Assembly (NCBI GenBank): GCA_019359355.1 | Contig: JAHHHM010000013.1 | Location: 62,001 to 126,000, forward strand | DNA from: Microcoleus vaginatus WJT46-NPBG5 | Lineage (GTDB): Bacteria; Cyanobacteriota; Cyanobacteriia; Cyanobacteriales; Oscillatoriaceae | Length of the DNA: 64,000 nt | Direction: 5' to 3' | Part shown: positions 1 through 17,757 of the stretch, piece by piece | Position numbering within the stretch: the first letter of the stretch is position 1 | How the letters are laid out: every line of letters starts with the position of its first letter | Notes under the pieces: model-generated | Database searches by the model: none | Told to the model about the DNA's origin: nothing | What the model saw: the letters and a program-made list of their open reading frames with translations, nothing else | Position numbers and translations under genes: made by a program

Positions 1-138
1 CAGTTTGTGCTGTTGTAACCGATTAAAGAGTTCTTTCCAGTGGTCGGGAACAGTCAGTGCATACAATTTTTCAGGGGACGAGATTTGGGTTGGGACTTGC
101 AATGCAAACAGTTGAATTGTGCTAGACTTTGATGCCAT
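1..138 (-). CDS. N-terminus of a third operon protein, candidate pPIWI-RE (partial)
   Basis: An ATG lies at 138 on the minus strand and the frame stays open for 46 codons to the window edge, so only the first residues (MASKSSTIQLFALQV...) are visible. It overlaps the end of the helicase gene by 17 bases in another frame, which indicates a tightly coupled operon. The visible residues carry no diagnostic motif. The identity as a pPIWI-RE protein (RNase H-fold, PIWI-like) is inferred only from the two genes before it, a zinc-ribbon PD-(D/E)xK nuclease and a DinG-type helicase, which are the known partners in the predicted pPIWI-RE three-gene system. Sequence left of position 1 is needed to confirm it. 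Confidence 0.65.
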   Translation of the reverse strand, partial: MASKSSTIQLFALQVPTQISSPEKLYALTVPDHWKELFNRLQQHKL

Positions 139-3100
139 CTATTTTCTCCAATGCACGATAAAAAGGTTCGTAGAGCGATCGCACGAGAGCGAGTTCCCGC
201 GTGTCAAAAGCTGTCCTTGTCTTGCCAAAGTAGGGACGAAGGACGTACTCAAATCCTTTAAGTAAGGAGTCTTGCTCAGTTTCCGGTTTCTTTTCAGCCA
301 GGTTGGGGGCCCAGGCTGAATCGATAAACCGAACTAGCGTCGGTTGATTGCCGCGAATGGTACGGGCGATCGCCTGCCACGTCAGTACCATCTGGCTCCA
401 AATCAGTCCTTCTCGGACATCTTTTTCTAACCCTTTGTGGGAATACTGCAACACAGTGTCGAGACTTTTGAGAAACAGACGATAGCCTTCAATTTTCCAA
501 TCTCCAGCAGTTTCACGCAACTTCCCTTCTCTCTCTTGGGTCAGAGCCTTTCTTTCTCTGCACAATGCCAACCGAAATTTGTAATCGAGGTCGTCAGGTG
601 CAGGATGGGGACGAACTAGAAAGTAAGCTCCACCAAAGGCACTCAATCTTTGCTCATTGAGAATATTTTTACCCCGCCCAATAGCTGCTATTGGTGCAAT
701 TAGGATAGCTCGATTCGTCTGAGCAAAGTTTTCCACGTTACCGCGCGGAATCAAAGATTCATCTATTTCCTCAAGGGGCGATCTAGCTGTTAAAGCTGCA
801 ACGCGCTTGTTCCATTCTCCAAGGGTATCAATTGATAAAATTGCATTGTAAACAAACTCAACTTGCTCGTAACTGTTGACATACCAAATCAGACGCTTTC
901 GACCTTCAGGCAGAGCATCAAAATCCCGTTGCAAAACGTCAGTTTGACGCAGCAGCGAGCGCACAATTTGTAACAGTGATTCTTCTTTAGAATCTACCCC
1001 AGAAACGCGAACGGATTTCCCATCAGCCCAGTAACAGGGAGAAAAGTAGAAACTACTTTGAGAAATTGCTTCTGTGGCACTACGTTCTTTCGGACGGAGG
1101 AGGTAATCTACTGGGCAATTAATATGATCTACAGGGCTTTGAGGAGCTACACTTGTACCGGACAGTAGCAAAGCGTGTGCGCCAAAAGTTCCTTCATTAG
1201 CAAACACCTGGGAAAAATTTTCTAAAAGCCAACGTCCCTGTCCTAAAGCTTGAAAATACCAAAGAGTCAATTGATTTGTTTGTCGTTCCAGTTTGAATCC
1301 ACAAACTAAACCAGATGCTAATCCTGGTACTAATCCGTAAAAATCGCGGGGAATGCGATTAAAGAAAACAACCTCCTGAGCGCTATCGACTTGTTCGCCC
1401 AGTCCATAAGCTGTTGTCACCGCCTGCTGAAAAAACCAGACGAAAAGTACCAGTTTGAGAAACAAGGCGAATCGACAGCTAAATCCCCATCGATCTTTTA
1501 CTGTTTTTAACCAACCTTTGTCGGTAAGTTTTTTCTGGATCAGGGAGAGTGTGACCTGCTGTTCTTGATAGTTTTCTTTAGCCAGCCTCATAGCATATTC
1601 AGCTAACCAAGAACTTTTCCAATCACCCCGAAGAAACTCAGCTAATTCTTGATAAACCGGATTTTTATCAAGAATAAACGTGCTTGATTCAGTATCGATA
1701 CCTTGAGAAGAAGCTATTTCTAACACAAAATCTCTGGCCAGAGACGAGCAAGTAAAAAACTGCCGCTTGGCTAACCATTCGCTCTCATCAGGTGAGAGTT
1801 GTAACTGGGTGCAGATGTTATCAACTAGAGTATCGGCATTTTGGATAGCATGATTGAATTGTCCAAAAATTACTTGTCGCAAGTCATTTCGAGAATTGCG
1901 GAGTTTCTGCGAGCGCGTCCAAGTTACAATTTGGTCGAGAAAGCCATTACTTCCCCGCTCAATCAGTTTGATAGCTGGTAGAAAAGTCGAGTCTAGATTA
2001 GCTTGAATTTTATCGCACTCGTCAAAAAATACAACGCTGCAAGTGCGATACATCAATTCGTAATAATTAATTGATTGCGGACTGACGTGAGGTAATGGAC
2101 GAGTGAAAATAGCGGCAGCTACCGTAGTCAAAATCACCTGAGCATCTGCTAGTTGATTAGCATCTCGATGTCTAGGACATTGCCCAATTAAAGGACAGAT
2201 TCTCTCACTTTCTGTATTATTACTATCATCATCTGCTCGAATTTGTCTCAACTCAAAGCAAGGAGGTGATGGAGGAACTGAAGGTTGAAAGTAACTGCTT
2301 AAAGGACAAGCTGTTGATAAGTGTTCAAAACCATCTAATCCGCCACTGACACTATGCCAGTTTTCTAAATGAACTTTTCGATTTCTTTGACCGATGACAA
2401 CTGACACTCGCACTCCAGCTTTTTTTAAGAGTGTCGCCATTCTCAAACAGGTAACAACTTCGTTAAAGACTACGCCTACTCTATGTCCTTTTTTGATTAG
2501 TGCAATAGTCAAGATTTCAATGAGTGTAGATTTCCCAGCATTCAGCAGCCCAACTAAGTGTTTTACTCCATCAAATACAATCGAATCGGTGGCAGCAAAC
2601 CCCATTTCTTGAAAGTGTTCGAGAATGATTTTTTGTAATTGTTCCTTTCTGTATTTATCTTCGCTGTTTTGGTCTAAAAGCTCTGCTGCTTCTTCCATTT
2701 CTGCTCTCGTGATGGCGATCGCGGGAGTGTGTTCGCGATGCAAGGAGATAGTCTTTCCCTGATAGCGGGGAAAATCTTGGGGAATTCTGACACTGTAAGC
2801 AGATTCTTGAGACCGAAACGAATATTCCTTACCTGGTTCGGCATATTTAACGGTTCGAGTGCGATACTTCAGTTTATTGCTCAGTAAGTCTTCAAAGCGC
2901 TCGAAACGGTTGCCCCAGACGGCAGGCATAGATTTACGAGAGAACCGATAAGCATCATCAATCTCATAAGCACGATACTTGGAAGGAATCTGTCTGTATG
3001 CTCTGACTGACTGCTCTACAGTATCTTCGTTTGATAAGTAGTGCAGGAGTTGCCTCAAATTGAACAGTGTTCTTTTTGCTTCTGCCGTCTCTACTAAAGC

Positions 3101-3307
3101 TATCAAAGGCCGAAACAAATAAAATCGACTGGAGATGAGCAACCAAACAGAAGTAGCTGTATCGAGTTCGGATTGAAGTCCGAGCTTTTCAATGGCAAAC
3201 AGAGCTAATTCTACATCGAGTAAGGCTTCAATCTGGTCTCTGGGGAGATTAGCTGACTCTTGTAGCGTAGCGCTTGCTTTCGATTTCCAAGACCTAGTTT
3301 CTCTCAT
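122..3307 (-). CDS. DinG/XPD-like superfamily 2 helicase of a predicted pPIWI-RE system
   Basis: This 1061-residue protein is a likely ATP-driven nucleic-acid helicase. Visible motifs are a Walker A variant GLLNAGKST (253-261), a DECD Walker B box (429-432), a motif III-like LLSGTS (about 714), a segment AIGRGKNI near 875 and a motif VI-like QAIARTIRG (977-985). Cysteines 334, 350, 371 and 377 lie between Walker A and DECD, where XPD/DinG helicases bind a 4Fe-4S cluster. The N-terminal 240 residues match no domain I can name and may be an island-specific domain. The start overlaps the nuclease gene by 14 bases and the end overlaps the third gene by 17. Family knowledge: DinG-type helicases accompany pPIWI-RE proteins and are proposed to open R-loops or duplexes of invading DNA. 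The helicase assignment is firm; the system assignment is inference. Confidence 0.8.
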   Translation of the reverse strand: MRETRSWKSKASATLQESANLPRDQIEALLDVELALFAIEKLGLQSELDTATSVWLLISSRFYLFRPLIALVETAEAKRTLFNLRQLLHYLSNEDTVEQSVRAYRQIPSKYRAYEIDDAYRFSRKSMPAVWGNRFERFEDLLSNKLKYRTRTVKYAEPGKEYSFRSQESAYSVRIPQDFPRYQGKTISLHREHTPAIAITRAEMEEAAELLDQNSEDKYRKEQLQKIILEHFQEMGFAATDSIVFDGVKHLVGLLNAGKSTLIEILTIALIKKGHRVGVVFNEVVTCLRMATLLKKAGVRVSVVIGQRNRKVHLENWHSVSGGLDGFEHLSTACPLSSYFQPSVPPSPPCFELRQIRADDDSNNTESERICPLIGQCPRHRDANQLADAQVILTTVAAAIFTRPLPHVSPQSINYYELMYRTCSVVFFDECDKIQANLDSTFLPAIKLIERGSNGFLDQIVTWTRSQKLRNSRNDLRQVIFGQFNHAIQNADTLVDNICTQLQLSPDESEWLAKRQFFTCSSLARDFVLEIASSQGIDTESSTFILDKNPVYQELAEFLRGDWKSSWLAEYAMRLAKENYQEQQVTLSLIQKKLTDKGWLKTVKDRWGFSCRFALFLKLVLFVWFFQQAVTTAYGLGEQVDSAQEVVFFNRIPRDFYGLVPGLASGLVCGFKLERQTNQLTLWYFQALGQGRWLLENFSQVFANEGTFGAHALLLSGTSVAPQSPVDHINCPVDYLLRPKERSATEAISQSSFYFSPCYWADGKSVRVSGVDSKEESLLQIVRSLLRQTDVLQRDFDALPEGRKRLIWYVNSYEQVEFVYNAILSIDTLGEWNKRVAALTARSPLEEIDESLIPRGNVENFAQTNRAILIAPIAAIGRGKNILNEQRLSAFGGAYFLVRPHPAPDDLDYKFRLALCRERKALTQEREGKLRETAGDWKIEGYRLFLKSLDTVLQYSHKGLEKDVREGLIWSQMVLTWQAIARTIRGNQPTLVRFIDSAWAPNLAEKKPETEQDSLLKGFEYVLRPYFGKTRTAFDTRELALVRSLYEPFYRALEKIDGIKV

Positions 3308-4475
3308 TTTCTCTCTTCCTTCTTTTAGTGCGAGAGGTCATTTTTGAGGAGGACGTGCTACCCTCACCTGCACCATCCGGCGCTTGAGTCGTCCGTTGCA
3401 CGGGAAATTCCTCTAATTTCTTTTTGGCTAAGGCGAAAATAGCATCATCAAAAACGGGTCTTACATCCTGCCAACGCCAGCGCGATTTAAGTTCTTTGAG
3501 ATAGGCAGGGCGCTCTTTCTTGCGTTCGTTGGGAACGACAATATAAGCTTCATCCCAAGGCGGATCTTTGGGAATGGGTTCGTCGCCCAGACGCTTTAAT
3601 AATAGGTAGGGCTTAGAGTAATCCTTGAGATCCAACGCCCAAACTTTGCCGTCAGGAAACCTCACCCGCAAGTCGTAGCGATCTCTCTCTGGGTAAAGCT
3701 CAACCTGTAGCCCTAGTTCTGTTAACTTCTCGTACAGTCGAATTTCTGACCGTCCGGGGTAAAACCAAAAGCGTTCAATACCGCGTTTGAGCTTAAGAGA
3801 ATCGTTGGAAAGCTTAACTTTTTTCTTGAGCCGCCGTCCACGTGGGCAACGATTACAGTTTGGATTGGCGATCGCCTGTTCTCGATCTACTGCGGCTAGT
3901 GCGTGACAGTAGGGGCAGGCATAGAAGTTTCCCCCCAATTGGTAGCAACTTGGCGCTATTTCGTAGCACTCCTCTAGCAAATCGGACAGCCCAATTCCCA
4001 ATCCAAAGTAGCCCTTGGCTTCTACTAACTCATGATTGGACAAAACGGGATGCTCGACAATAAACCTACGGAACTTCGTATAAATTTGTGCCCCTTGTGG
4101 ATGCGCTTGGCATCGTTGCAGCAAGATAGTTGCTATTCTGGACTGCTCTTGAGAAAGAGTGCTTCCACCAAAGGCTTCTGCCAACTCGATGGTTAGCTCA
4201 GTCGGTTCCCCCAAGAACAGCAACGTATCTGAGCTATCAATCTCTTCGTCAACTTCTACTCCCCATTCTTCAAAAGGCTTTTCGCACCAATCCTGGTAAA
4301 ACTCCGGCACGCTCGCTGGGGCAGATTGTGGCTTGTCTACCACTAAAAACGCCAAAACAACCTTGTCGTAACCCAGTTGCAGGTCTAGAGGGTAAGGATA
4401 AAGCCTCCCCTGCCGCTGAGAAGTCTGGATTAGACCTGCGGAAATCTGTTCCAGTGTGGGTAGTTTGATTTTCAA
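3294..4475 (-). CDS. Zinc-ribbon PD-(D/E)xK nuclease of a predicted pPIWI-RE system
   Basis: The first gene of the minus-strand operon encodes 393 residues. A zinc ribbon is seen as CPYC (187-190) and CNRC (207-210). It is followed by a restriction-endonuclease-fold core: E244/E249 in a helix, D268 in a strand, and LDLKDY with D282 and K284, giving D-x13-D-x-K. The C-terminus is basic and Ser/Thr-rich (about 360-393). A nuclease with this ribbon-plus-nuclease order, next to a DinG-like helicase, is what has been described for the REase component of pPIWI-RE islands. The likely role is cleavage of invading DNA or of R-loops. The start is the first ATG after an AT-rich leader. The gene contains a HIP1 octamer (about 3868) and no GCCGGC, unlike genes to its right. 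Confidence 0.8.
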   Translation of the reverse strand: MKIKLPTLEQISAGLIQTSQRQGRLYPYPLDLQLGYDKVVLAFLVVDKPQSAPASVPEFYQDWCEKPFEEWGVEVDEEIDSSDTLLFLGEPTELTIELAEAFGGSTLSQEQSRIATILLQRCQAHPQGAQIYTKFRRFIVEHPVLSNHELVEAKGYFGLGIGLSDLLEECYEIAPSCYQLGGNFYACPYCHALAAVDREQAIANPNCNRCPRGRRLKKKVKLSNDSLKLKRGIERFWFYPGRSEIRLYEKLTELGLQVELYPERDRYDLRVRFPDGKVWALDLKDYSKPYLLLKRLGDEPIPKDPPWDEAYIVVPNERKKERPAYLKELKSRWRWQDVRPVFDDAIFALAKKKLEEFPVQRTTQAPDGAGEGSTSSSKMTSRTKRRKRENERN

Positions 4476-4624
4476 GTTTGTTTACTACCTTAAAAAATCT
4501 ATTTTTTCTAATTGTAAATCGGTTTACAGGGTTTGGCTGGGAAATATATAAATAATTTCAGTTATAGCCAGAGCCTTCAATCTAGCGCTGTTAAGGTGAC
4601 AAAGAAGAGTGGCTTTGAGCTGAC

Positions 4625-4791: not shown

Positions 4792-4825
4792 TGCCCCATG
4801 CCCAATCCCCCATGCCCCATGCCCT
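4792..4825. repeat. Short tandem heptamer-type repeat (CCCCATG/CCCAATC)
   Basis: Repeats of the words CCCCATG and CCCAATC occur in tandem. The same words form a large inverted pair at 43213-43254 and 43347-43378, so this is a dispersed family in this genome. Short tandem heptamers are common in filamentous cyanobacteria. Confidence 0.7.
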
Positions 4826-4926
4826 ACATTTTTGCAACGTCTGAGCTACGGGGTTGAAATGTGTTCTAGACTCGATCCGGTAGAATTGTTGTCACCGGCA
4901 TTTGCCCTTAAGCCACCTGAGTTGTC

Positions 4927-6918
4927 ATGCATTTACCCATACCCCTTGGGACTGTTTTGCAAAATCGCTACTACTTAATCGACCTTCTCGGTCATAGGGG
5001 ATTTGGCCGCACGTATTTGGCCAAAGACCTAGAACGCGACAGCCAGTTGTGTGCGCTCAAAGAATTGATTCCCGAAGGGGTTGCCGACCAATCCGAATTT
5101 TACGAACGCTTCCGAGAGCAAGTCTTTGCCTTATTTCGCATTCGCCACCCGCAAATTCCCCAGTTCCGTACGACCTTTGAGCAGGACAACCGTCTGTTTC
5201 TCGTTCAAGACTACATAGAGGGGAAAAGCTACGCAACGCTACTAAAAGAGCGCAAAGCACCCCGTTCTTCGGCGCTTACCGGCACAACGAATGAGGAGAC
5301 GCTGCCCTTTGGGGGTGCCTTTTCTGAAGAAGAAGTGTTGCAACTGCTGCTGCAACTGCTGCCGGCCTTAGAATATCTGCACGGCATGGGAATCACCCAC
5401 GGGCGAATTTCTCCAGAAAATATTATTTTACCGGCAACCGATAGCCGCGCCATTTTGCCAGCGGACAACGACACACTGACACCAGAAACACCCCTGCCGG
5501 TGCTGATTGATCTCGGTGTGGTACATGAAATGATGAGCCGGTTGAAACAGTTAGCAACAGCAGGAGGGCAACCGGCAGAGGCAGAAACTCCCCCAGTCGA
5601 TAAAAATGCGACCAGTGGCGACCTTTATGCTTTGGCAGTGACAGCCGTTGTACTGCTCACCGGGCGAAAGCCACAAGAATTATTTGATAACACGAAACTG
5701 ATTGAAGATTGGCAGTCTTTCGTGCCGGCAAGTCCCCAGTTCGCCCGCCTCTTAAATCGGATGTTGAGTGACAGCCCCGAAAATCGTTACCAGTCGGCGC
5801 GTGAAGTTGCCGCCGCTCTTTTATTGCTGAGTTTCCCCGCTCCTAATACCCGACTGGCACCCACCCCTCAACCCAAGCGCCCGGCTCCTCAGCCCTCGAT
5901 TTGGGGCAATCCTTGGGCGTATGTGATCAGCGCCGGCCTGGTTTTAACTGCCGGCCTTGGTTCTTGGGCAGCGATCCGATCCTTGATGGAACGTCCCCTG
6001 GTGCCGGCAACCCTCATCCAAACACCCGCAACTTCTACCAACCCCCCATCCTCCCCACAACCGAACGCAACGCCTCAACCGCTCAACGTGGTGCCCGACA
6101 AAACAACCACGGTTGAAGGCACCCTTAGGCCCAATCAAACCCTCACCTACCTGATTCCTGCCCAACAATGGCAGCTCTTAAGCGCCTCGCTCACCGGCAC
6201 AGGTGTTTTGATGAGCGTCCTAAATCGGGATCGACAACCGTTGAATCAGCCGGTGAAGCCGGTGGAACGCTGGGAAGGCTTGCTTTTCTCGGCTGGAGAC
6301 TATTACCTTCAGCTCAACCCTGTCCCTGGCAGTGAACCCAAACCGTACAAGCTAGACATTAATTTAACCGGCTATTTTCCCAGAAAATTATGTCAACAAC
6401 CTGATGCCGAGGGCGTTCAGAGTTGGTATCCAGTTTTTATTGAATACAGCCCCGATGCACTGCAACGGGTGCAATCTGATTTCTGCCGGGATACCTTTAT
6501 CACACCCAAAGCATCAGCCGGCAACCCCTCTATCCTGGTGGCTTCTTTTGGGGATCAAGCCAAAGCTCAAGCGTTTGCCGATTTGATGAACCGCGAAGTT
6601 GGCAGTGGAACCGTTGGGGAACCGGCAGCCGGTAGTGCGAAAAGTTCTTGTAGTGATCGCGATCCCGGTGGCACTCAGACTTGGTATCCAGTTTTAGTGG
6701 AATATACCAAGGAGCATTACATTCAAATTCTGTCCTACTGTCCCAATGCCTCTGTGACACAGAAATCGTCTGGCGAAGGATCGTATATTGAGGTAGCTGC
6801 ATTTCTGGATAAATCAAAGGCAGCCGAGATGGCCGGTTTCATCACCAGAGAAGTTGCCAGCGCTGAAGTTGGGGCTGCTTCCACCCGTCCCGTTCCTAAG
6901 TCCGGCGGGGTGAAGTAG
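4927..6918 (+). CDS. Membrane-anchored Ser/Thr protein kinase-like protein with degenerate active site
   Basis: The 663-residue protein has a kinase fold at about 7-300, a proline-rich linker, one membrane segment (about 330-350) and an outer part. The glycine loop (GHRGFG, 22-27) and ATP-binding Lys45 are kept. The catalytic loop reads HGRISPEN (158-165) instead of HRDxKPEN, so the proton-acceptor Asp and the Lys two residues later are lost, and the metal-binding loop is DLG (195-197). Catalysis is therefore doubtful and a pseudokinase scaffold is likely. The C-terminal region has a beta-rich segment (about 395-485) and then two related repeats of about 75 residues, each with a WYPV...EY core and a SPOR-like ending. 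The ATG at 4927 is the first start matching the kinase N-terminus. It is transcribed away from the defence-like operon. Confidence 0.8.
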   Translation: MHLPIPLGTVLQNRYYLIDLLGHRGFGRTYLAKDLERDSQLCALKELIPEGVADQSEFYERFREQVFALFRIRHPQIPQFRTTFEQDNRLFLVQDYIEGKSYATLLKERKAPRSSALTGTTNEETLPFGGAFSEEEVLQLLLQLLPALEYLHGMGITHGRISPENIILPATDSRAILPADNDTLTPETPLPVLIDLGVVHEMMSRLKQLATAGGQPAEAETPPVDKNATSGDLYALAVTAVVLLTGRKPQELFDNTKLIEDWQSFVPASPQFARLLNRMLSDSPENRYQSAREVAAALLLLSFPAPNTRLAPTPQPKRPAPQPSIWGNPWAYVISAGLVLTAGLGSWAAIRSLMERPLVPATLIQTPATSTNPPSSPQPNATPQPLNVVPDKTTTVEGTLRPNQTLTYLIPAQQWQLLSASLTGTGVLMSVLNRDRQPLNQPVKPVERWEGLLFSAGDYYLQLNPVPGSEPKPYKLDINLTGYFPRKLCQQPDAEGVQSWYPVFIEYSPDALQRVQSDFCRDTFITPKASAGNPSILVASFGDQAKAQAFADLMNREVGSGTVGEPAAGSAKSSCSDRDPGGTQTWYPVLVEYTKEHYIQILSYCPNASVTQKSSGEGSYIEVAAFLDKSKAAEMAGFITREVASAEVGAASTRPVPKSGGVK

Positions 6919-7277
6919 GCTGGCTTCTATCTCGCTTGCCGGCTGTGTTGTTGAAAAAACGTTAAACTTGTCCGGGTACTTGACGAAATGGATGCAGTCT
7001 TAAACGTCAGAGTACCGAGCCGGTAGCACATCTTATAGGGGATGTAGAATTCGTTTAATCGCTCATTATTTAATCTTAGTTTTTTTCTGAAGTTTTAATT
7101 CCTGCTTAAACTATAGTTAAAAGCAATCAATCGGAAGCGGTAAGAATTTGTGGAAATCGACTCACAGACTGTTAAAAAATCAGAAATATATTTTTTGGTG
7201 GCTGCTTAAGGTTAAATTGATGAGAGTTAGAGTGCATCAGCTGGATGTGGTTTCGTCGTGATTCAAAGGTAAGGGCG
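6919..7277. other. Intergenic region, AT-rich
   Basis: About 360 bases separate the pseudokinase from the next gene. I see AT-rich promoter-like sequence around 7055-7130 but no clear gene, terminator or repeat. Confidence 0.5.
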
Positions 7278-7877
7278 ATGAGTGATAGTATGGCATTTCT
7301 GGCAGGGACAGCCTTCGCTGGGATTGCGGCTTTGCTATTGCTGAAAGGAGGAGGAACGCCAGCCCCAACTTACCCAGTCAATTCTCTTCCGCCGCCGCCC
7401 CCTGCCCTGTCTTCGAGCAATACGCTTCTACCGCCGCCCCCACTGTTGCCGGCACCGACAAGCTCTAATACAGAACAGCAGCGCTACGACATGGAACGGC
7501 TGAAGGCTCAGATGGAACAGCAAAAGACTGACATCGAACAGCTCAAAGCTCAAATCCAGAATCAGCAAATGCTGATCCAAACGCTATCGGCGCAGGCGAA
7601 AGTCAATGCCTTGAGTTCCCAAAATTACCAAACTCAGGGGATAGTTTCCACTGAGCAGCCGACAAATCCCATGCTTGCTGGCATCCTCTGGGCGTTAGGT
7701 GGCGCAATCGTGACGGTGATGGGTGGCATTGTGCTAGCATCGGTGCTAACATTGCTCTCACAACAGCAGCGTTCTTCTCGGACTGTGCAACTGATTCACC
7801 CCATCAATGATCGATCAACTTACTTGCCGCCTAAGCGACGCAAGCGAGCTGAACCTGATGAATATTACGAAGAATAA
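7278..7877 (+). CDS. Hypothetical membrane protein with coiled coil
   Basis: I recognise no family. From the start chosen, the protein has a membrane segment close to the N-terminus (MAFLAGTAFAGIAALLLL), a Pro/Ser-rich spacer with two runs of prolines, a Gln/Glu/Lys-rich coiled coil of about 45 residues, a second membrane segment (AGILWALGGAIVTVMGGIVL) and a basic tail ending in acidic residues. The ATG at 7278 is preceded by AAGGTAAGGG, a plausible ribosome binding site. An upstream in-frame ATG at 7245 would add 11 residues but has a weaker site. The topology suggests a small bitopic or hairpin membrane protein whose coiled coil lies between the two segments. Confidence 0.65.
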   Translation: MSDSMAFLAGTAFAGIAALLLLKGGGTPAPTYPVNSLPPPPPALSSSNTLLPPPPLLPAPTSSNTEQQRYDMERLKAQMEQQKTDIEQLKAQIQNQQMLIQTLSAQAKVNALSSQNYQTQGIVSTEQPTNPMLAGILWALGGAIVTVMGGIVLASVLTLLSQQQRSSRTVQLIHPINDRSTYLPPKRRKRAEPDEYYEE

Positions 7878-8349
7878 TTGTAAAGCCGGTTTTCTCCGAG
7901 TCTGTTTTAGCCAATTTTCAGCATTGTTTAACCAATGCGGCGCAGCAAACTTTTGATTTCAGCTCGCGCTTGTGCCGGCTGAGTTAGATTATGTTGCTTA
8001 CCTCCTATAAGGTAATTACACTTACCGTCTTTTTTGGCTACATATCTGCGATTGAGCGGGAGAGTTTTTGGCGAATATTGGTAGCCGGCTTATGGGGGAA
8101 TGGTATAAGCCGGGGTAGAGATTTTCTTATTTTTCTCGATAAACTTAAAGATTTGACTGAAACCAGTTGTAGGGGATGCTATATTAACCAATTTTTTATA
8201 AACTGGAATAACTAGAGCCTAGAGCAACAGCGATAGGATATTTTTAGGTTTGCAAGAAAAATGGCAACGCATTCATTTGTGTAGAAATTTTAAAACCTAA
8301 AGGCAAAATAATAAATGCCCACTTTTATCAAAGACAGCAAGTTTTAGAA
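7878..8349. other. Intergenic region
   Basis: These 472 bases contain several GCCGGCT words and an AT-rich stretch before the next gene. A 74-codon open frame at 7991-8215 has no ribosome binding site and no recognisable features, so I do not call it. Confidence 0.5.
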
Positions 8350-11300
8350 ATGATTTTTTTTCAGGATCTGAAATGGATGAAAGATTCTCAAGATCAACCT
8401 TCTTTCAAACTTCCAAACCAAGATTTAAATTTAGAGTTGTCTGAGTCAGAAGAACTGGGCCGGTTAAAAGCAGAATTACAGCGATACCGAACCCTAGACG
8501 AAAATCTTCCCGTCGGGTACTTTACCCTAAGCTCAGAAGGAATTATTCTGACGGTTAATTCATTTGCGTTAGCTCGTTTAGGCTACTGTGCGGAGGAACT
8601 AAGGGAACAATCGATTTTTAATATTACTCATCCTGAAGATCGAGAAAAACTGCAAGCAAACTTAACAGCTATCTTTGAAAATCCCCTAGAAAGTTGCGAT
8701 TGGGAATTGCGTCAAATCGGCAAAGCCGGCAACATTTTATGGATGAAAGCAACTGCCCGTGCGGTGCCAGAAGTTGAACCCAATCAGCTCATGCTCATCT
8801 GCGAAGATATCACCCAGCGCCAGCAAGTAGAAAACGAACTTCGCTCAACCAAAGCCGTCCTGGAATACGCAGTCGAAGGTATTTCGCGGCTAGACGAACA
8901 AGGGCGTTACATTGCTGTTAATAGAGCTTATGCCGGCACTCTTGGTTACACACCTGAAGAAATGATCGGCAGGGAATGGTATCCGACGGTACATCCTGAA
9001 GATCAAGAAAAGATGATGCTTGCCTACCAGCAAATGTTGATTGACGGCAAGGTAAAAGTTGAAGCTAAGGGTGTGCGGAAAGATGGCTCAGTTTTTTACA
9101 AACAGTTAGTGATGGTTACTGCCTTTGATAGCCAGAATCAATTCATCGGCCATCACTGCTTCATGAAAGATATTACCGAGCGCAAACAGGCAGAAGCAGC
9201 GCTACAAAAAGCTCACGACGAATTAGAAAGACGCGTTGAGGAACGCACAGCCGAACTTACTCTAGCTAATACACTTTTAAAACAAGAAATTGCGGAACGC
9301 CGGCGGGCAGAAGAAGAACGGCAAAAGCTGGCTTCACTGGTGGAAAACAGCATGGATTTTATTGCGATGTCATCCCTAGAAGGAAAAATTATTTTCCTTA
9401 ATGAAGCCGGCCAAAAAATGGTGGGTTTAGACAATTTAGAAGCAGCGCTTGCTAAACCAATGTCTGACTACTTTTCTGAGGAAGGCTGGGCGCAGTTTTG
9501 TGAAGTTACGTTGCCGGCAGTCCTGACAACCGGCCATTGGGAAGCAGAGGGCCAACTTCGTCACTTCAAGACGGGCCAACTCATTGATGTGCATAGAAGT
9601 TGTTTTGTCGTCAAGCATCCGCAAACCGGCGAAAAACTTTGCCTTGCCACAGTCCAGCGCGATATCACCGAACGCAAGCGGGCTGAGGAACATCTCATCC
9701 GCATCAGCAAAGCCGTTGAAAGTGCCAGTGATGCTATTGGCATGGCGGATGTCACCGGCACCTCCATCTATCACAACCGGGCTTTTCTCAACTTGTTTGA
9801 GTACACCGTAGACGAACTGAACGCAGCCGGCGGGCCACCGGCAATCTACTCAAATCCAAATGTGGCACGGGAAGTCTTCGATGCCATAACCCGTGGCAAT
9901 TCTTGGAATGGTGAGGTACAAATGCATACCCGCACCAGCTGCCCTGTGCTGATTCTTCTTCGTGCCGACGCGATTAAAGATGACAAAAACAATATTATCG
10001 GGTTAATCGGTGTGCATACCGATATCACCGAGCGCAAACGGGCGGAAATCGCCCTGAGGCAGCAAACTGAGCGGGAGAAACTCATCGGGCTGATTTCCCA
10101 GCGCATCCGCCAGTCTTTGAACTTAAATGAAATTCTCAATACCACGGCTGCAGAAGTGCGAGAATTTCTGGAGACTGACCGGGTGTTCATCTACCGCTTT
10201 GAGCCAGACTGGAGTGGGGTAATCGTCGTAGAATCTGTCGGTTCGGACTGGACGCCGGTTTTGGGGACGAAAATCAAAGACTGCTATTTTGCAGAAACTT
10301 ATGTTGAACCATACCGGAATGGTCGAATTCAGGCAACCGATGATATTTATGCAGCCGGTTTTTCCGAATGCCACATCGATTTACTGGCGAAGCTTCAAAT
10401 AAGGGCAACCTTAGTCGTCCCCGTCTTGCAAGGAAATCAGTTGTGGGGGCTACTGGTTGTCAATCATTGTTGTGCACCCCGGCAATGGCAGAGGCTGGAA
10501 ATCGATCTGATCAAGCAACTTGCAACCCAGGTGGGGATCGCCATTCAGCAATCAGAACTCTACCAGCAAGTGCAGTTGCTCAACGTTGATTTGGAAAACC
10601 AAGTGCAGGAACGCACCCACCAGCTGCAACAGGCGCTGAATTTTGAATCCATGCTCAAACGAGTCACAGATCATGTCCGCGACAGTCTGGACGAAAGCCA
10701 GATTTTGCAAACAGCAGTGCGGGACTTAACTGAAGTGCTGGACACTGAAGGCTGCGATACAGCTTTGTATGATCCCACCCGCGCCACAGCGATGATTAGC
10801 TATGAGTACACCCCCCGCGTGTCCCCTGCTAAAGGGCGCATCATCCGAATGGCGGACTTTCCAGAAGGCTACCGCCAGCTGCTGCAAGGTCAATATTTCC
10901 AGTTTTGCGAACTCTCACCCAGCCTCCGCGAACCGCTTTCGATTCTGGCGTGTCCTATTTTCGATAACAAAGTGGTGCTGGGTGATATGTGGTTATTCAA
11001 GCAGCAGGATGATGGTTTTAATGAGCTGGAAATTCGGTTGGTGCAGCAAGTAGCAAATCAATGCGCGATTGCGATTCGTCAAGCGCGACTTTTCCAAGCT
11101 GCTCAAGCACAAGTGGAGGAACTGGAAAAACTCAATCGGCTCAAGGATGACTTTTTAAATACTATTTCTCACGAATTGCGAACGCCGATGTCTAACATAA
11201 AAATGGCTATGCAGATGTTAGAAATTTCCATGAATCAGCAAAAAATGGTGGAGGGAGAAACGAGTAAAGCCCAGGCAGCAACTACCCCTACGTTCCGCTA

Positions 11301-11853
11301 TTTCAAGATATTACAAGATGAATCGGAAAGAGAAATTAGTTTAATTAACGATCTGCTGGCTTTGCAGCAACTCGATGCCGGCACTCAACCTTTGATGCTG
11401 ACGACGATTCACTTACAAAATTGGATTTCTCATGTCATCGAGCCTTTTGAACAGCAGTTTCGCAAACAGCAGCAAATCTTGCACGTTGAAATTGCTTCCG
11501 ATTTGCCTCCCCTTGTTTCCGATATGTCGGCTTTGGGGCGTATCCTGTCAGAACTATTAAATAATGCTTGTAAATACACTCCACCCCAGGGAGAAATTAC
11601 CGTTACAGCCAGGGTTGAATCAGGAATGCTTCAGTTAGGGGTGAGTAACACCGGCATCGAGATTCCTGCGAGTGAGTTTACCCATATTTTTGATAAATTT
11701 TATCGCATTCCCAGTGCTGATCCCTGGAAGCAGGGCGGGACTGGATTGGGATTAGCGCTAGCAAAGAAACTAGCAGAACATTTAGGCGGTAGACTTTGGG
11801 TTGAAAGTGGTGAAGGTCGGACTTATTTCACCCTTGAATTACCTGTTACTTAA
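8350..11853 (+). CDS. Multi-PAS, dual-GAF sensor histidine kinase with a cyanobacteriochrome-like GAF
   Basis: The protein has 1167 residues and no membrane segment. Order: PAS domains at about 45-160, 165-285, 330-450 and 455-580 with a coiled coil near 285-325, a first GAF (590-760), a second GAF (780-920), HisKA (His941 in SHELRTPM) and HATPase (about 1040-1165; N box LLNNACKYT, G2 box GGTGLGLAL). The first GAF has the bilin-binding Cys-His pair (C674-H675) and ends with LWGLLVVNHC, as in cyanobacteriochromes. At the DXCF position it reads DCYF (644-647), with a cysteine shifted by one. The G1 box reads SNTGIEI rather than DxGxG, so ATP binding may be altered. No receiver gene is adjacent, so its partner is unknown. 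Predicted role: cytosolic light or redox sensing. Confidence 0.85.
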   Translation: MIFFQDLKWMKDSQDQPSFKLPNQDLNLELSESEELGRLKAELQRYRTLDENLPVGYFTLSSEGIILTVNSFALARLGYCAEELREQSIFNITHPEDREKLQANLTAIFENPLESCDWELRQIGKAGNILWMKATARAVPEVEPNQLMLICEDITQRQQVENELRSTKAVLEYAVEGISRLDEQGRYIAVNRAYAGTLGYTPEEMIGREWYPTVHPEDQEKMMLAYQQMLIDGKVKVEAKGVRKDGSVFYKQLVMVTAFDSQNQFIGHHCFMKDITERKQAEAALQKAHDELERRVEERTAELTLANTLLKQEIAERRRAEEERQKLASLVENSMDFIAMSSLEGKIIFLNEAGQKMVGLDNLEAALAKPMSDYFSEEGWAQFCEVTLPAVLTTGHWEAEGQLRHFKTGQLIDVHRSCFVVKHPQTGEKLCLATVQRDITERKRAEEHLIRISKAVESASDAIGMADVTGTSIYHNRAFLNLFEYTVDELNAAGGPPAIYSNPNVAREVFDAITRGNSWNGEVQMHTRTSCPVLILLRADAIKDDKNNIIGLIGVHTDITERKRAEIALRQQTEREKLIGLISQRIRQSLNLNEILNTTAAEVREFLETDRVFIYRFEPDWSGVIVVESVGSDWTPVLGTKIKDCYFAETYVEPYRNGRIQATDDIYAAGFSECHIDLLAKLQIRATLVVPVLQGNQLWGLLVVNHCCAPRQWQRLEIDLIKQLATQVGIAIQQSELYQQVQLLNVDLENQVQERTHQLQQALNFESMLKRVTDHVRDSLDESQILQTAVRDLTEVLDTEGCDTALYDPTRATAMISYEYTPRVSPAKGRIIRMADFPEGYRQLLQGQYFQFCELSPSLREPLSILACPIFDNKVVLGDMWLFKQQDDGFNELEIRLVQQVANQCAIAIRQARLFQAAQAQVEELEKLNRLKDDFLNTISHELRTPMSNIKMAMQMLEISMNQQKMVEGETSKAQAATTPTFRYFKILQDESEREISLINDLLALQQLDAGTQPLMLTTIHLQNWISHVIEPFEQQFRKQQQILHVEIASDLPPLVSDMSALGRILSELLNNACKYTPPQGEITVTARVESGMLQLGVSNTGIEIPASEFTHIFDKFYRIPSADPWKQGGTGLGLALAKKLAEHLGGRLWVESGEGRTYFTLELPVT

Positions 11854-12258
11854 GGGCTAGCAGCCCAGGGGGCAAGTCTCCGCCCGAGGAGAAGCTTTTC
11901 AATGAATTCTTGCAACCAGGTACCCTTGAAGGTGAATTTCGCGTAAAACTCCACCAGCTTTTTTCTTTTTTGTAACCAACTACTTATTCTATCAATCTAG
12001 TCAATACACTCTATCCTTAAGATTTATTAAGTTTTAATTGTTTTTAAATTTACCCCTTAAAGTAGTTATAGATACATAATAATTTCTTTACATGGGCATC
12101 GTCTGCCAGTTCTATAGATGCGACGAATGCCCTCAAAAACCTCCATCTTTTATGAGAGGTCAGCTTGACTATTTCTCAAGGCATTTAGCAATTTTGAGAG
12201 ATAGTAATTTTGCAACCACATTTTTTTGATTTTTTATTTTCCAAGGAGACTGGATTGA
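11854..12258. other. Intergenic region with leader hairpin before the giant kinase gene
   Basis: 405 bases without a gene. GGGCATCGTC (12094-12103) pairs with GACGAATGCCC (12122-12132) with one bulged A, giving a 10-bp hairpin with an 18-base loop about 130 bases before the next start. Further weak pairings follow (ACCTC near 12140 with GAGGT near 12154). It could be an attenuator or an RNA processing site. AAGGAG at 12242 is the ribosome binding site of the next gene. Confidence 0.45.
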
Positions 12259-15200
12259 ATGCAATTATACCCTACTCAAACAATTAAATCAACCGAAGAA
12301 ATAACCATTTTTCTGAACGGTTACCAGATCCTCGAAACCCTTCATGAAGGTGCCAATACAGTTATTTACCGGGGGGTAAGAGAATTAGATAACTGCTCGG
12401 TTATTATCAAAACCCTGAAATCTGAGTATCCGACGATTGAAGAAATTACCCGTTTAAGACATGAATATAAAATCATCCAGCCTTTATATATAGAAGGAGT
12501 TATCAAAACTTACGCACTCGAAAATTGTCAGCACAGTTATGCTCTAATTTTAGAAGATTTTACCGGCTTGTCTCTTAAAGAATCAATCAGCCCTCAAAAA
12601 CTGTCTTTATTGGATTTTCTTGAGGTGGCAATAAACCTAGCTCAGACGCTAGGACATTTGCATTTATCTCACATTCTTCACAAAGATATCAAGCCAAATA
12701 ATATCCTTATAAACCCCAAGACAGGGCAAATAAAAATTATTGACTTTAGCATTTCATCGCGTCTATCTAAAGAAACCCCAAGCCTTAGCAATCCCAACTT
12801 GCTAGAAGGCACCCTCGCCTATATGTCACCCGAACAAACCGGCAGGATGAATCGTTCTTTAGACTACCGCACTGATTTTTATTCTCTGGGAATCACTTTT
12901 TATGAAATGCTAACAGGTCAGTTGCCTTTTAATTCCACCGATGCAATGGAATTGATTCACTGTCATATTGCTAAAGTGCCGGTTCCTCCTCACCATCTTA
13001 ATAGAGAAGTTCCGCCAGCGGTTTCGGATATCGTAATGAAATTAGTTGCCAAAACCGCTGAAGACAGATATCAAAGTGCTTGGGGACTCAAAACAGATTT
13101 AGAAGAATGCTTGAGGCAGCTGCAAACCACTGGAAAAATCGAGGGATTGATTCCGGGAAAATTAGATAAATCGGGTCAATTTCTCATTCCACAAAAACTT
13201 TACGGACGTGATGCCGATGTAGCAACTTTGTTAGAATCATTCGTTCGCGTAGGAGTGAGTTCAGATGATAACTCTTCGGAAAAACAAATAATTTTAGAGC
13301 AAAACTTGCCCCTAAAAGGCAAATTAGAGCAAAACTTGCCCCTAAAAGGCAAAGCTGAAATGATGCTGGTTTCTGGATATTCCGGCATTGGAAAAACCAG
13401 TGTTGTTAACGAAATTTATAAGCCCATCGTCAAAGCACGAGGATATTTTATTGCCGGCAAGTTTGACCAGTTCAAGCGAAATATCCCCTATGCCGCCATC
13501 ATTCAAGCATTTCAATCATTGATTCGGCAACTTTTAACAGAAAATCCTGAAAAAATCGCCGTTTGGAAAGAAAAATTAGACGCTGCTTTTGCTCAGAATG
13601 GGCGAGTCATTACGGATGTGATTCCTGAAGTTGAACTAATTGTTGGGGTGCAACCCGAAGTTCCCAACTTAGGGCCGGCAGAATCTCAAAATCGCTTCAA
13701 CCGGCTGTTTAAACAATTCATTCATGTTTTTACCACCAAAGAACACCCCCTCGTTCTGTTTTTAGATGATTTGCAGTGGGCGGATAGTGCGTCTTTAAAG
13801 TTAATTCAACTGTTGATAACTGATACAGAAAGCCGGTATTTGTTGGTGCTCGGGGCATATCGGGATAATGAAGTCAGCCCAACTCATCCGTTAATACTGA
13901 CTTTAGAAGAAATTCAAAAAGCCGGTGCTGCGGTTAATCATATTGTCCTCAAACCTTTAGGCTTTGAAAATGTCAATCAATTAGTTTCAGACACTCTTCA
14001 TTCAGAAACCCGAACAACAACTCTTGCTGAGTTGCTTTTCAGCAAAACCGGCGGAAATCCTTTTTTCTTAACCCAATTATTGCAGACGCTACACGCAGAA
14101 AGGTTGCTGAATTTCGACTTTGTGGAAGGTCGTTGGCTGTGGGATATGGAAAAAATTCAAGCCATCGGCATTACAGATTTTAATGTTGTTGAACTGGTTG
14201 CTAGAAATATTCAAAAATTGCAACTAGAGACACAGGAGGTTTTAAAATTAGCTGCCTGCATCGGTAACTCTTTTAACTTAGATGTTTTGGCAATTGTTAA
14301 TGAGAAATCGATGTTAACCACCGCCAATGAGCTGTGGGAGGCGCTACAAGCCGGCTTGATTTTGCCACTGAGCAACGCCTACAAAATTCCCCTATTTTTT
14401 GATAAGGAACAACAGGGAGATTTGCTGGTAGAGAATGTAAGGATTGGCTACAAGTTTTTACATGATCGCGTGCAGCAGGCAGCGTATTCTTTAATTCCTG
14501 AAGACCAGAAAAAAGCTGTTCACCTGAAAATTGGTCAATTGCTGTTGCAAAAAACAGCTAAATCTGCTTTAGAAGAAAATATCTTTGATATTGTCAACCA
14601 GCTAAATATCGGGTTGGAATTGATCACAAATCCCTCAGAAAAAGAGGAACTTGCCAAACTGAATTTAATTGCAGTACGGAAAGCCAAGGCAGCAAATGCC
14701 TATGAAGCGGCTGTCCGGTACGCGAATGTTGGTTTGGGACTTCTCCCAGCATCAGGGTGGCAAAATCACTACGAATTAACGCGGGATCTCCATGTCGAAG
14801 CCGTGGAAGTAGAATATTTAAACACTAACTACGAGCAAGCAAAACAGCTTGCTGAAATTGTTCTGAGAGAAGCAGAATCTTTACTGGACAAAGTCAAGGT
14901 TTATGAAATAAAAATCCAGTTTTACATTGCTCAAAACTTAATGGAGGAAGCGATTAACACAGCTTTAGAAGTTTTGAAAATGCTGGGTGTATTCATTCCA
15001 AAAAATCCTAACAAAATCAACATTTTAGTCGGAGTGCTTCGCACAAAACTTACTCTAACCGTTAAGCAAATTGAGGATCTGGCTCAGTTGCCAGAAATGA
15101 CCGATCCTTATAAACTTGCGGCAATGCGGATCTTGATAGCTGTCCTTGTTCCTGCTTTTCTAACTGCTCCAAATTTATTTCCACTTGTGACCTTTAAAAT

Positions 15201-17757
15201 GGTCAATCTTGCTGTCCGGTATGGAAATTCTCCCCTGTCTGCTTACGGCTACACACTCTATGGCTGGCTGTTATGTGGGGCGCTTGGGGACATCAATTCA
15301 GGATATAAATTTGGCCAGCTTGGCATCAGGCTGTTGGAGCAATTTGACGCCAGAGATATAAAATGTAAAGTCATTAATATCTTTAATGCCTTTATTCGCC
15401 ACTGGAAAGATCATGTCAGGGAAACAATTCAGCCTTTTGTTGAAGCCCTTCAAATTAGCTTAGAAACTGGAAATATAGAATATACAGGCTACAGCACAAT
15501 CAATTACTGTAACTATCTTTTTCTATTGGGTGAAGACTTGTCAAAAGTCAACTCCCATCAGCGTCAATACATTGATTTAATGCGAAAGCTGAAACAAGAG
15601 TATGTCATTCATTCGGTTAGCATAGGCCGGCAAGCTGTCTTAAATTTACTGAACCTATCGGAAGATCGATGCAGCTTGATAGGGGAAAGCTTTAATGAAA
15701 ATGAAATGCTGCCGGTTTTTAAAGAGGCAAATATTCTCCCGTCTCTTTTTACGACCTATTTTTATAAATTAATGCTCGCGTACTTATTTAAAGACTACAA
15801 AGGAGCCATAGAAAATGCATCTTTAGCAGAACCCTATGCAGTCGGCGTTTCTGGATTTTTGCTCTTCTCAGAACACAATTTTTACTATTCACTTGCGCTT
15901 CTAGGCTTCTGCTCAAGCTGCGATCACCAAAAAAACAATAAAATTCAGCAACAAACGTTGAAGCAAGTCAATTTAAATCAAACAAAACTGAAGCAATGGG
16001 CTGTTGAAGGGCCAGACAATTACCAGCATAAATATCTCCTAGTTGAAGCAGAAAAAGCCCGAATTTTGGGGCAAGAAATTAAAGCAATGAAGCTTTACGA
16101 CTGCGCCATTCAAGGAGCGAAAGAACAAGGATATATCCAAGAAGAAGCGCTTGGCAATGAACTAGCAGCAGAATTTTACCTTGCTTGTGGCAGAGAAAAA
16201 GTAGCCAAAACTTACATGACAGAAGCTTACTACGGCTACATTCGCTGGGGAGCAACGGCTAAAGTTAAAGACTTGGATGAAAGATATCCCCAGTTAATTT
16301 TCCGAACGCCTCAGCAAGCAAGCCTAGGCCTTGATATTACTCAGACAACTTCCTCAATTGGCAAAAACGCTCAAATTCTCGATTTAGCCACAGTTCTCAA
16401 ATCATCTCTTGTGCTGTCAGGTGAAATTGTTCTGAGTAACCTGCTAGATAAATTGATGAAAGTTGTCATCGAAAACGCTGGCGCTCAAAAAGGCTTGTTC
16501 CTGACTAAGCACGAAAATCAATGGGTTATAGAAGCCGAGGGATTAGCCAGTAAAGATGATGTGACAGTCACACAATCGATTTCTATTGACGCTACAGAAA
16601 AATTGCCAATTTCCGTACTTAATTATGTGGAAAGAACCAGGGAAAATCTCGTTTTAGACGACGCGTCCAATACCGGCACTTTTGCAGCAGATCCTTATAT
16701 TGCCGGCAATCAACCTAAATCTATTTTATGCTCACCCCTCATTCATTCTGGAAAACTGACCGGCATTCTTTACTTAGAAAATAACTTGACAAAGGGAGCT
16801 TTTACCCCAGATCGGCTGAAAGTTTTAAATCTCTTAACAGCCCAAATTTCTATTTCCATAGAAAACGCTCGGTTGTATGAAAGAGAGCGAGAAAAATCTC
16901 AACAACTTGAACAATCTCTGTACAAACTGCAACAGACTCAATCCCAACTGGTTCAAACCGAAAAAATATCCAGCTTAGGGCAACTGGTTGCCGGTGTTGC
17001 TCATGAAGTGAATAACCCTGTGAGTTTTATCAATGGCAACTTGCATCACGCAACTCAGTACGTCAAAGATTTGCTGAAGCATTTGCAACTGTATCAAAAA
17101 TATTTACCGGCTGTTCCCAATGAAATTCTAGAGGATGCCGAGGAGATTGATTTGGAATTTTTGATGGAAGACTTGCCAAAAATGCTGTCTTCTATGCAAG
17201 TCGGCACAGATCGCATCAAAGAGATTATGCAGTCGTTACGCAACTTTTCGCGGGTCGATACTGCCGAGAAAAAGCCGACAGATATTCATGCCGGCATTGA
17301 TAGCACTCTGATGATTTTGCAACACCGGCTCAAAGCTAAAGGAGAACAAAAAGCGATTGTGGTGGTGAAGGAATACGGAGAATTACCTTTAGTTGAATGC
17401 TATGCCGGCCAACTCAATCAAGTGTTTATGAATCTGCTTGCCAATGCCATTGATGCGATGCAAGAAGCCAGACTCACCAGCGAAAAAGAAATTCGGATTC
17501 GCACAGAACTGGTAGAGAATAACCGCATAGCCATCCAAATTCAAGATAACGGGCCGGGAATGACAGAAGCGATACAATCTAAACTCTTTGAACCCTTCTT
17601 TACAACCAAGCCGGTGGGTAAAGGAACTGGCTTAGGCTTATCGATTTCGCACCAAATTATCGTAGAAAAACACGGCGGGAATTTACAATGTTTTTCTGAT
17701 CCCGGACAAGGTGCAAAGTTTGTCATAGAAATTCCGACCCAGGAGAACCCAAATTAA
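12259..17757 (+). CDS. Ser/Thr kinase-AAA ATPase-GAF-histidine kinase fusion (HstK-like)
   Basis: This 1832-residue protein joins two kinase types. The N-terminal Ser/Thr kinase (about 15-290) has Lys51, HKDIKPNN (141-148) with catalytic Asp143, and a DFS (162-164) in place of DFG. An AAA/STAND ATPase follows, with Walker A GYSGIGKT (373-380) and a Walker B ending LFLDDLQWAD. A long helical region, probably TPR-like, spans about 780-1370. A GAF domain lies at about 1390-1550 and a histidine kinase ends the protein: His1582 in HEVNNP, N box NLLANAIDAM, and GTGLGLSI. The Asp of the Ser/Thr kinase is intact, unlike the pseudokinase at 4927. Such fusions are well known in heterocystous and other filamentous cyanobacteria. 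A perfect 30-bp duplication in the linker before Walker A is noted separately. No receiver gene is adjacent. Confidence 0.9.
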   Translation: MQLYPTQTIKSTEEITIFLNGYQILETLHEGANTVIYRGVRELDNCSVIIKTLKSEYPTIEEITRLRHEYKIIQPLYIEGVIKTYALENCQHSYALILEDFTGLSLKESISPQKLSLLDFLEVAINLAQTLGHLHLSHILHKDIKPNNILINPKTGQIKIIDFSISSRLSKETPSLSNPNLLEGTLAYMSPEQTGRMNRSLDYRTDFYSLGITFYEMLTGQLPFNSTDAMELIHCHIAKVPVPPHHLNREVPPAVSDIVMKLVAKTAEDRYQSAWGLKTDLEECLRQLQTTGKIEGLIPGKLDKSGQFLIPQKLYGRDADVATLLESFVRVGVSSDDNSSEKQIILEQNLPLKGKLEQNLPLKGKAEMMLVSGYSGIGKTSVVNEIYKPIVKARGYFIAGKFDQFKRNIPYAAIIQAFQSLIRQLLTENPEKIAVWKEKLDAAFAQNGRVITDVIPEVELIVGVQPEVPNLGPAESQNRFNRLFKQFIHVFTTKEHPLVLFLDDLQWADSASLKLIQLLITDTESRYLLVLGAYRDNEVSPTHPLILTLEEIQKAGAAVNHIVLKPLGFENVNQLVSDTLHSETRTTTLAELLFSKTGGNPFFLTQLLQTLHAERLLNFDFVEGRWLWDMEKIQAIGITDFNVVELVARNIQKLQLETQEVLKLAACIGNSFNLDVLAIVNEKSMLTTANELWEALQAGLILPLSNAYKIPLFFDKEQQGDLLVENVRIGYKFLHDRVQQAAYSLIPEDQKKAVHLKIGQLLLQKTAKSALEENIFDIVNQLNIGLELITNPSEKEELAKLNLIAVRKAKAANAYEAAVRYANVGLGLLPASGWQNHYELTRDLHVEAVEVEYLNTNYEQAKQLAEIVLREAESLLDKVKVYEIKIQFYIAQNLMEEAINTALEVLKMLGVFIPKNPNKINILVGVLRTKLTLTVKQIEDLAQLPEMTDPYKLAAMRILIAVLVPAFLTAPNLFPLVTFKMVNLAVRYGNSPLSAYGYTLYGWLLCGALGDINSGYKFGQLGIRLLEQFDARDIKCKVINIFNAFIRHWKDHVRETIQPFVEALQISLETGNIEYTGYSTINYCNYLFLLGEDLSKVNSHQRQYIDLMRKLKQEYVIHSVSIGRQAVLNLLNLSEDRCSLIGESFNENEMLPVFKEANILPSLFTTYFYKLMLAYLFKDYKGAIENASLAEPYAVGVSGFLLFSEHNFYYSLALLGFCSSCDHQKNNKIQQQTLKQVNLNQTKLKQWAVEGPDNYQHKYLLVEAEKARILGQEIKAMKLYDCAIQGAKEQGYIQEEALGNELAAEFYLACGREKVAKTYMTEAYYGYIRWGATAKVKDLDERYPQLIFRTPQQASLGLDITQTTSSIGKNAQILDLATVLKSSLVLSGEIVLSNLLDKLMKVVIENAGAQKGLFLTKHENQWVIEAEGLASKDDVTVTQSISIDATEKLPISVLNYVERTRENLVLDDASNTGTFAADPYIAGNQPKSILCSPLIHSGKLTGILYLENNLTKGAFTPDRLKVLNLLTAQISISIENARLYEREREKSQQLEQSLYKLQQTQSQLVQTEKISSLGQLVAGVAHEVNNPVSFINGNLHHATQYVKDLLKHLQLYQKYLPAVPNEILEDAEEIDLEFLMEDLPKMLSSMQVGTDRIKEIMQSLRNFSRVDTAEKKPTDIHAGIDSTLMILQHRLKAKGEQKAIVVVKEYGELPLVECYAGQLNQVFMNLLANAIDAMQEARLTSEKEIRIRTELVENNRIAIQIQDNGPGMTEAIQSKLFEPFFTTKPVGKGTGLGLSISHQIIVEKHGGNLQCFSDPGQGAKFVIEIPTQENPN
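13294..13353 (+). repeat. Perfect 30-bp in-frame tandem duplication inside the HstK-like gene
   Basis: Positions 13294-13323 and 13324-13353 are identical. They encode the ten-residue unit LEQNLPLKGK twice (residues 346-355 and 356-365), in the linker between the Ser/Thr kinase and the AAA ATPase. Confidence 0.95.

What the first reader, a model, noticed from the sequence alone, without database searches (positions are those of the whole stretch)
1..4475. Candidate pPIWI-RE conflict system cut by the window edge
A zinc-ribbon PD-(D/E)xK nuclease (D268, D282-x-K284), a DinG/XPD-like helicase with four cluster cysteines, and an overlapping third ORF form an operon with 14- and 17-base overlaps. 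This is the layout described for predicted pPIWI-RE islands. Whether the third gene really encodes a PIWI-like protein cannot be seen, because only 46 codons are present. The helicase also has an unassigned 240-residue N-terminal region.
Basis: partly seen in the sequence, partly recalled or inferred. Interest (0 to 1): 0.9.

Follow-up and report, generated by a model that had tools for sequence, protein, structure and literature searches.

The report
Cyanobacterial pPIWI-RE island lacking R/E
The cut-off operon is a complete three-gene bacterial island (nuclease, helicase, Argonaute-like protein) of a predicted but untested anti-invader type, and it belongs to a cyanobacterial branch whose Argonaute-like protein has lost the two amino acids the family is named after while keeping likely catalytic ones.

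Summary
In the host genome the third ORF is a full 891-aa gene with pPIWI_RE_X, MID_pPIWI_RE and RNaseH_pPIWI_RE domains, all above Pfam cut-offs. The 'unassigned' helicase N-terminus is pPIWI_RE_Z; the nuclease is pPIWI_RE_Y plus REase. Gene order, 14/17-base overlaps, four Fe-S cysteines and PD-(D/E)xK residues match the island Burroughs et al. predicted in 2013; I found no test of the three-gene system. New details: (1) the island belongs to a cyanobacterial clade (8 distinct PIWI sequences) in which the eponymous R is S/N/A and the E is F/I/M; no sampled protein outside it lacks both. These columns fit PsPIWI-RE R639/E718. D636 is invariant in the clade and D698 is D or E. (2) It moves as a cassette: a 7.26-kb block is 94% identical in a genome of another family whose sufB is 79% identical, and similarity stops just outside the three genes; congeners differ at this locus. 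(3) The host has a second, R/E-bearing island and a conventional pAgo. All three genes are under purifying selection. Likely role: guided restriction of invading DNA (inferred). New variant of a known kind; moderate interest.

The parts
3294..4475 (-). Gene 1: pPIWI-RE island nuclease (PprRE), 393 aa
   Evidence: Pfam pPIWI_RE_Y 1.3e-20 and pPIWI_RE_REase 6.7e-31; PADLOC PprRE 3e-48
4041..4454 (-). pPIWI_RE_Y domain, residues 8-145, with invariant R136
   Evidence: invariance in 19 homologues
3846..3917 (-). Zinc-ribbon cysteines C187, C190, C207, C210
   Evidence: C187 invariant, C190 and C207 at 90% or more of 19 homologues
3408..3755 (-). REase domain, residues 241-356, with D268, D282, K284
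   Evidence: Pfam; residues invariant in 19 homologues
122..3307 (-). Gene 2: DinG-type Fe-S helicase (PprDinG), 1061 aa; overlaps gene 1 by 14 bases
   Evidence: PADLOC PprDinG 7e-150
   Evidence: Pfam 1.7e-27
2177..2308 (-). Fe-S cluster cysteines C334, C350, C371, C377
   Evidence: invariant in 12 homologues
2528..2551 (-). Walker A region, residues 253-260, with G258/K259
   Evidence: invariant
2012..2023 (-). Walker B, DECD at residues 429-432
   Evidence: D429, E430 and D432 invariant
353..376 (-). Helicase motif VI, Q978/R982/R985
   Evidence: invariant
1..138 (-). Gene 3: first 46 codons of the 891-aa pPIWI-RE protein; the rest lies outside the window at G000:C44:59463-62000. Overlaps gene 2 by 17 bases
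   Evidence: Pfam X, MID and RNaseH_pPIWI_RE domains
4476..4593 (.). Upstream end of the transferred cassette: identity with G481 stops at 4558 and with G004 at 4593; host flank shared with congeners resumes near 4686

Best explanation
A complete pPIWI-RE three-gene island that most likely works as a mobile, nucleic-acid-guided restriction system. Shown by sequence: three genes with the expected domains and intact helicase and REase motifs in one overlapping operon; transfer as a unit; purifying selection on all three; loss of R and E with two acidic residues kept in the PIWI domain. Inferred: the PIWI subunit binds a short guide and recognises RNA-DNA hybrids on transcribed or replicating foreign DNA, the Fe-S DinG helicase unwinds or translocates, and the PD-(D/E)xK nuclease cuts. 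In this clade the PIWI subunit may cut as well, through D636 and D698. The R-E pair has been replaced rather than lost by decay, because the strands around it stay well conserved within the clade.
For: Pfam and PADLOC matches for all three proteins. Strict gene order in all loci holding the three genes. Active-site residues invariant. R and E columns changed in all 8 clade members in four alignment settings and by profile-profile alignment. Cassette transfer: 94.4% DNA identity over 7259 bp with G481, sufB 79%. dN/dS 0.07-0.32. The only biochemical study of a relative, PsPIWI-RE, found RNA-guided DNA and DNA-guided RNA cleavage dependent on D525/D610 but not on R639/E718 (PMC10991935). The R-loop restriction model is that of PMC3702460.
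Against: No phage or plasmid interference has been shown for a three-gene island in the papers I could reach. The PIWI catalytic residues are missing in most relatives, so PIWI cutting is not a general feature. The D636 column is less securely aligned than D698, and one clade member has E for D698. PsPIWI-RE knockout affected cell division and ciprofloxacin sensitivity, which suggests a replication role. The structure model failed.
Confidence: 0.6

Rival explanations
1. The PIWI subunit is only a guide-loaded sensor and all cutting is done by the REase; D636 and D698 are kept for folding, not catalysis.
For: Burroughs et al. report catalytic residues in only a subset of the family. Most relatives sampled here lack an acidic pair. 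D698 is E in L015.
Against: D636 is invariant in the clade although neighbouring positions vary. The equivalent pair, as far as the alignment shows, is essential in PsPIWI-RE.
Confidence: 0.45
2. The island serves mainly plasmid maintenance or competition between plasmids, and chromosomal copies are strays.
For: Relatives lie on plasmids, several typed conjugative or mobilizable; the closest plasmid relative is on Calothrix PCC 7716 p3.
Against: Many islands are on large chromosome-sized contigs. The cassette brings no plasmid or integrase genes with it.
Confidence: 0.2
3. The island has a housekeeping role in resolving R-loops or in DNA replication.
For: DinG-type helicases act on R-loops (stated in PMC3702460). 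PsPIWI-RE deletion raised ciprofloxacin sensitivity (PMC10991935).
Against: Patchy distribution: 98 of 391 genomes in the order at E 1e-15 and absent from congener G002; cassette transfer between families; presence on plasmids.
Confidence: 0.15

Closest known systems
pPIWI-RE three-gene island (Burroughs, Iyer and Aravind 2013, PMC3702460; PADLOC Ppr)
   Same: Domains X-MID-RNaseH, Z-DinG and Y-zinc ribbon-REase; gene order REase, DinG, PIWI; overlapping genes; patchy, mobile distribution
   Different: The PIWI protein lacks the eponymous R and E; the REase has no N-terminal HTH extension, unlike the second island of the same genome
PsPIWI-RE of Pseudomonas stutzeri (PMC10991935)
   Same: Same protein family by domain; acidic residues at the positions that match its catalytic D525 and D610
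   Different: R639 and E718 equivalents are S and F here; the PsPIWI-RE sequence itself was not available to align
Long prokaryotic Argonautes (a pAgo_II match is encoded elsewhere in this genome, L152)
   Same: MID and PIWI modules; likely guide use
   Different: X domain in place of N/PAZ; helicase and REase partners in the operon; no PDB chain matched by sequence

Membership tests
pPIWI-RE three-gene island | Gene order REase, DinG helicase, pPIWI-RE with overlapping or closely spaced ends | tested here: met
pPIWI-RE three-gene island | REase protein with Y domain, zinc ribbon and PD-(D/E)xK residues | tested here: met
pPIWI-RE three-gene island | DinG-clade helicase with Z domain and cysteine-rich Fe-S region | tested here: met
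pPIWI-RE protein family | X, MID and RNase H domains over curated cut-offs | tested here: met
   115.6/30.5, 33.6/26.6 and 61.9/25 bits
pPIWI-RE protein family | The conserved arginine and glutamate that name the family | tested here: not met
   S743 and F834 in the window protein; S/N/A and F/I/M across the clade. Columns identified by conservation and by spacing to PsPIWI-RE R639/E718; Figure 2A of the paper could not be seen
Catalytically active PIWI (PsPIWI-RE type) | Aspartates on beta1 and beta4 (D525, D610) | tested here: inconclusive
   D636 and D698 present; D698 aligns well, D636 less so
pPIWI-RE three-gene island | RNA-dependent restriction of invading DNA | not testable with these tools
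   Prediction in PMC3702460; no test of the three-gene island found

The most novel reading that the evidence does not exclude
The window's island defines a separate functional class: pPIWI proteins that have shed the R-E pair yet keep an acidic catalytic pair, so that PIWI and REase act as two cooperating nucleases, running beside an R/E-bearing and probably non-catalytic pPIWI-RE island in the same cell as a division of labour.
Probability: 0.3. Interest if true: 0.65.

Novelty: new variant of a known kind. Interest (0 to 1): 0.5.

Why it matters
The pPIWI-RE island has been a prediction since 2013 with no test of the three-gene system that I could find. This clade is a natural experiment on its defining residues: R and E are lost together, as expected if they form a pair, while the operon stays under selection. 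It offers defined cassette boundaries to clone, and a host with an R/E-bearing island for comparison.

Tried and rejected
AlphaFold2 on three clade A PIWI proteins gave pLDDT 35 and pTM 0.28, so no fold search was run on it. Sequence searches against the PDB found nothing. No phage record holds the PIWI or helicase protein; one viral contig holds a distant relative. The idea that clade A and clade B islands travel together was dropped: they co-occur in G000, G004 and Calothrix PCC 7716, but G481, G466 and G459 show a single match. A clean empty site in G002 was considered, but the short remnant there matches the start of a gene in G001, so it marks a variable locus, not a proven pre-insertion state. 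The small XRE-type gene at L002:11611-11853 was considered as a regulator; no relative was found in the 11 other loci compared, and it lies in the flank shared with congeners that lack the island, so it is not part of it. General divergence as the cause of R/E loss was rejected: branches as distant from the rest as clade A keep the R. Consensus promoter and terminator scans at the ends were uninformative.

Full report
Observation. The three minus-strand ORFs exist as described: nuclease 3294-4475, helicase 122-3307, and a third ORF cut by the window edge after 46 codons, with overlaps of 14 and 17 bases. The window is G000:C44:62001-126000 of a 6.46-Mb genome. Reading left shows the third gene complete: 891 aa, G000:C44:59463-62138. 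The closest named relatives are from Nostoc, Plectonema, Symplocastrum and Calothrix, so the host is taken to be a cyanobacterium (inference).

Identity. The third protein matches Pfam pPIWI_RE_X (21-384), MID_pPIWI_RE (470-597) and RNaseH_pPIWI_RE (616-882), all above curated cut-offs. The helicase N-terminus is pPIWI_RE_Z (23-185). The nuclease is pPIWI_RE_Y plus pPIWI_RE_REase. PADLOC names them PprPIWI, PprDinG and PprRE. Active-site residues are invariant across distant relatives: REase D268, D282, K284 with C187 and R136; helicase C334, C350, C371, C377, G258/K259, D429/E430/D432, Q978/R982/R985. This is the island predicted by Burroughs et al. (PMC3702460), who report a strict gene order; every locus in which I held all three genes keeps that order.

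What differs. In alignments with 24 PIWI proteins from other branches, the column at window residue 743 is R in all 24 and the column at 834 is E in 22 (S and D in the other two). The six clade members then held have S or N at the first and F or I at the second. Four alignment settings agree, and a profile-profile alignment puts S743 on R734 and F834 on E814 of L020. With more genomes (46 full-length proteins) the clade, called A here, has L002, L017, L113, L015 (L114 is the same DNA), L013, L014, L022 and the deepest member L115, which has A and M at these columns. Outside it, L125 lacks only the R (G), L065 only the E (S), and L079 has D for E. None lacks both.

Are these the residues Burroughs et al. 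meant? I could not see their Figure 2A. The R-to-E spacing of 74-80 in clades B and C fits R639 to E718 (79) in PsPIWI-RE, and I saw no other conserved R-E pair in that order with such a spacing. The spacing from the beta4 acidic column to the R fits less well (38-46 in most, 30 in one, against 29). Divergence alone does not explain the loss: clade A is 14-23% identical to the other branches, no less than several that keep the R.

Catalysis. D636 is the same in all clade members; D698 is D except for E in L015. In my sample only two rhizobial plasmid proteins, L077 and L079, also show D at both columns. Both aspartates are needed in PsPIWI-RE, where R639A and E718A were about as active as wild type. 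So losing R and E need not abolish cutting. The D636 column is less secure than D698.

Mobility and selection. The block shared with G481, a genome of another family, covers L002 12326-19558 at 94.4% identity, with no similarity outside it in the stretches compared; sufB of the same genomes is 79% identical. G004 shares the block at 90.8%, with sufB at 81%. This points to horizontal transfer of the three genes as one cassette. In two congeners the flanks are 91-92% identical but the locus differs: G001 carries about 7 kb with a CHAT/TPR-like and a haemagglutinin-like gene, G002 only a short remnant of the latter (those two gene names are my reading of the sequence, not a database result). dN/dS is 0.15-0.19 for the REase, 0.07-0.09 for the helicase and 0.28-0.32 for the PIWI gene: all constrained, PIWI least. 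Within PIWI the RNase H part is the most conserved and the X domain among the least, as expected if X meets a changing partner (inference).

Context. The same genome has a second island of another clade (L016), in which R and E are present and the two catalytic columns hold N and E, and a conventional pAgo. Island-type helicases occur in 98 of 391 genomes of the order with this protein as query at E 1e-15, and in 15 of 386 genomes of the phylum sample with a family model at E 1e-30; the two figures use different queries and thresholds. Relatives lie on plasmids of cyanobacteria, Bradyrhizobium, Cupriavidus, Azospirillum, Microvirga, Streptomyces and Hymenobacter.

Mechanism. Most likely the PIWI protein holds a short guide and recognises RNA-DNA hybrids on foreign DNA, the DinG helicase remodels them, and the REase cuts; in this clade the PIWI protein may cut too. 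Shown: parts, order, conservation, transfer, residue changes. Inferred: guide use, target, restriction. I found no experiment on the three-gene island (open-licence papers only).

Verdict. By descent and architecture the operon belongs to the pPIWI-RE islands; by the letter of the family's definition its PIWI protein fails the R/E criterion, so it is reported as a new variant of a known kind.

Noticed in passing
L016 (G000:C33:166000-185000), 5519-13167: A second, divergent pPIWI-RE island in the same genome, with an N-terminal extension on its REase and with R and E present.
   Followed up: partly
L152 118-2334 (G000:C13, near 14609-15385): A conventional prokaryotic Argonaute (PADLOC pAgo_II, 1223 bits) in the same genome, so three Argonaute-like proteins in all.
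   Followed up: no
L077 from 8838 and L079 from 8696: On Bradyrhizobium elkanii and Microvirga plasmids the pPIWI-RE gene is annotated as 9.3-10.2 kb long; only about the first 950 residues match pPIWI-RE, so these may be large fusions.
   Followed up: partly
L149 about 4850-11730; L150 about 5130: At the island's locus, congener G001 has a haemagglutinin-like and a CHAT/TPR-like gene and G002 a short remnant: a variable site.
   Followed up: partly
L082 3639-11216 (IMGVR_UViG_3300012932_000186): A viral contig holds a distant REase and DinG pair next to two integrase-like ORFs and a terminase-like ORF (names are my reading); the contig ends before any PIWI gene.
   Followed up: partly
L125 7860-10529; L065 7595-10159: Two other PIWI proteins lack one of the two eponymous residues each: L125 the R (G), L065 the E (S).
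   Followed up: no
L013 5470-8002; also L058, L067, L068, L122, L131: Several islands have a helicase or PIWI gene split into pieces, so islands seem to decay often, or the assemblies hold errors.
   Followed up: no
window 4792-4824: A short repeat just right of the island matches dozens of places in related genomes, like the short repeats common in cyanobacteria.
   Followed up: no
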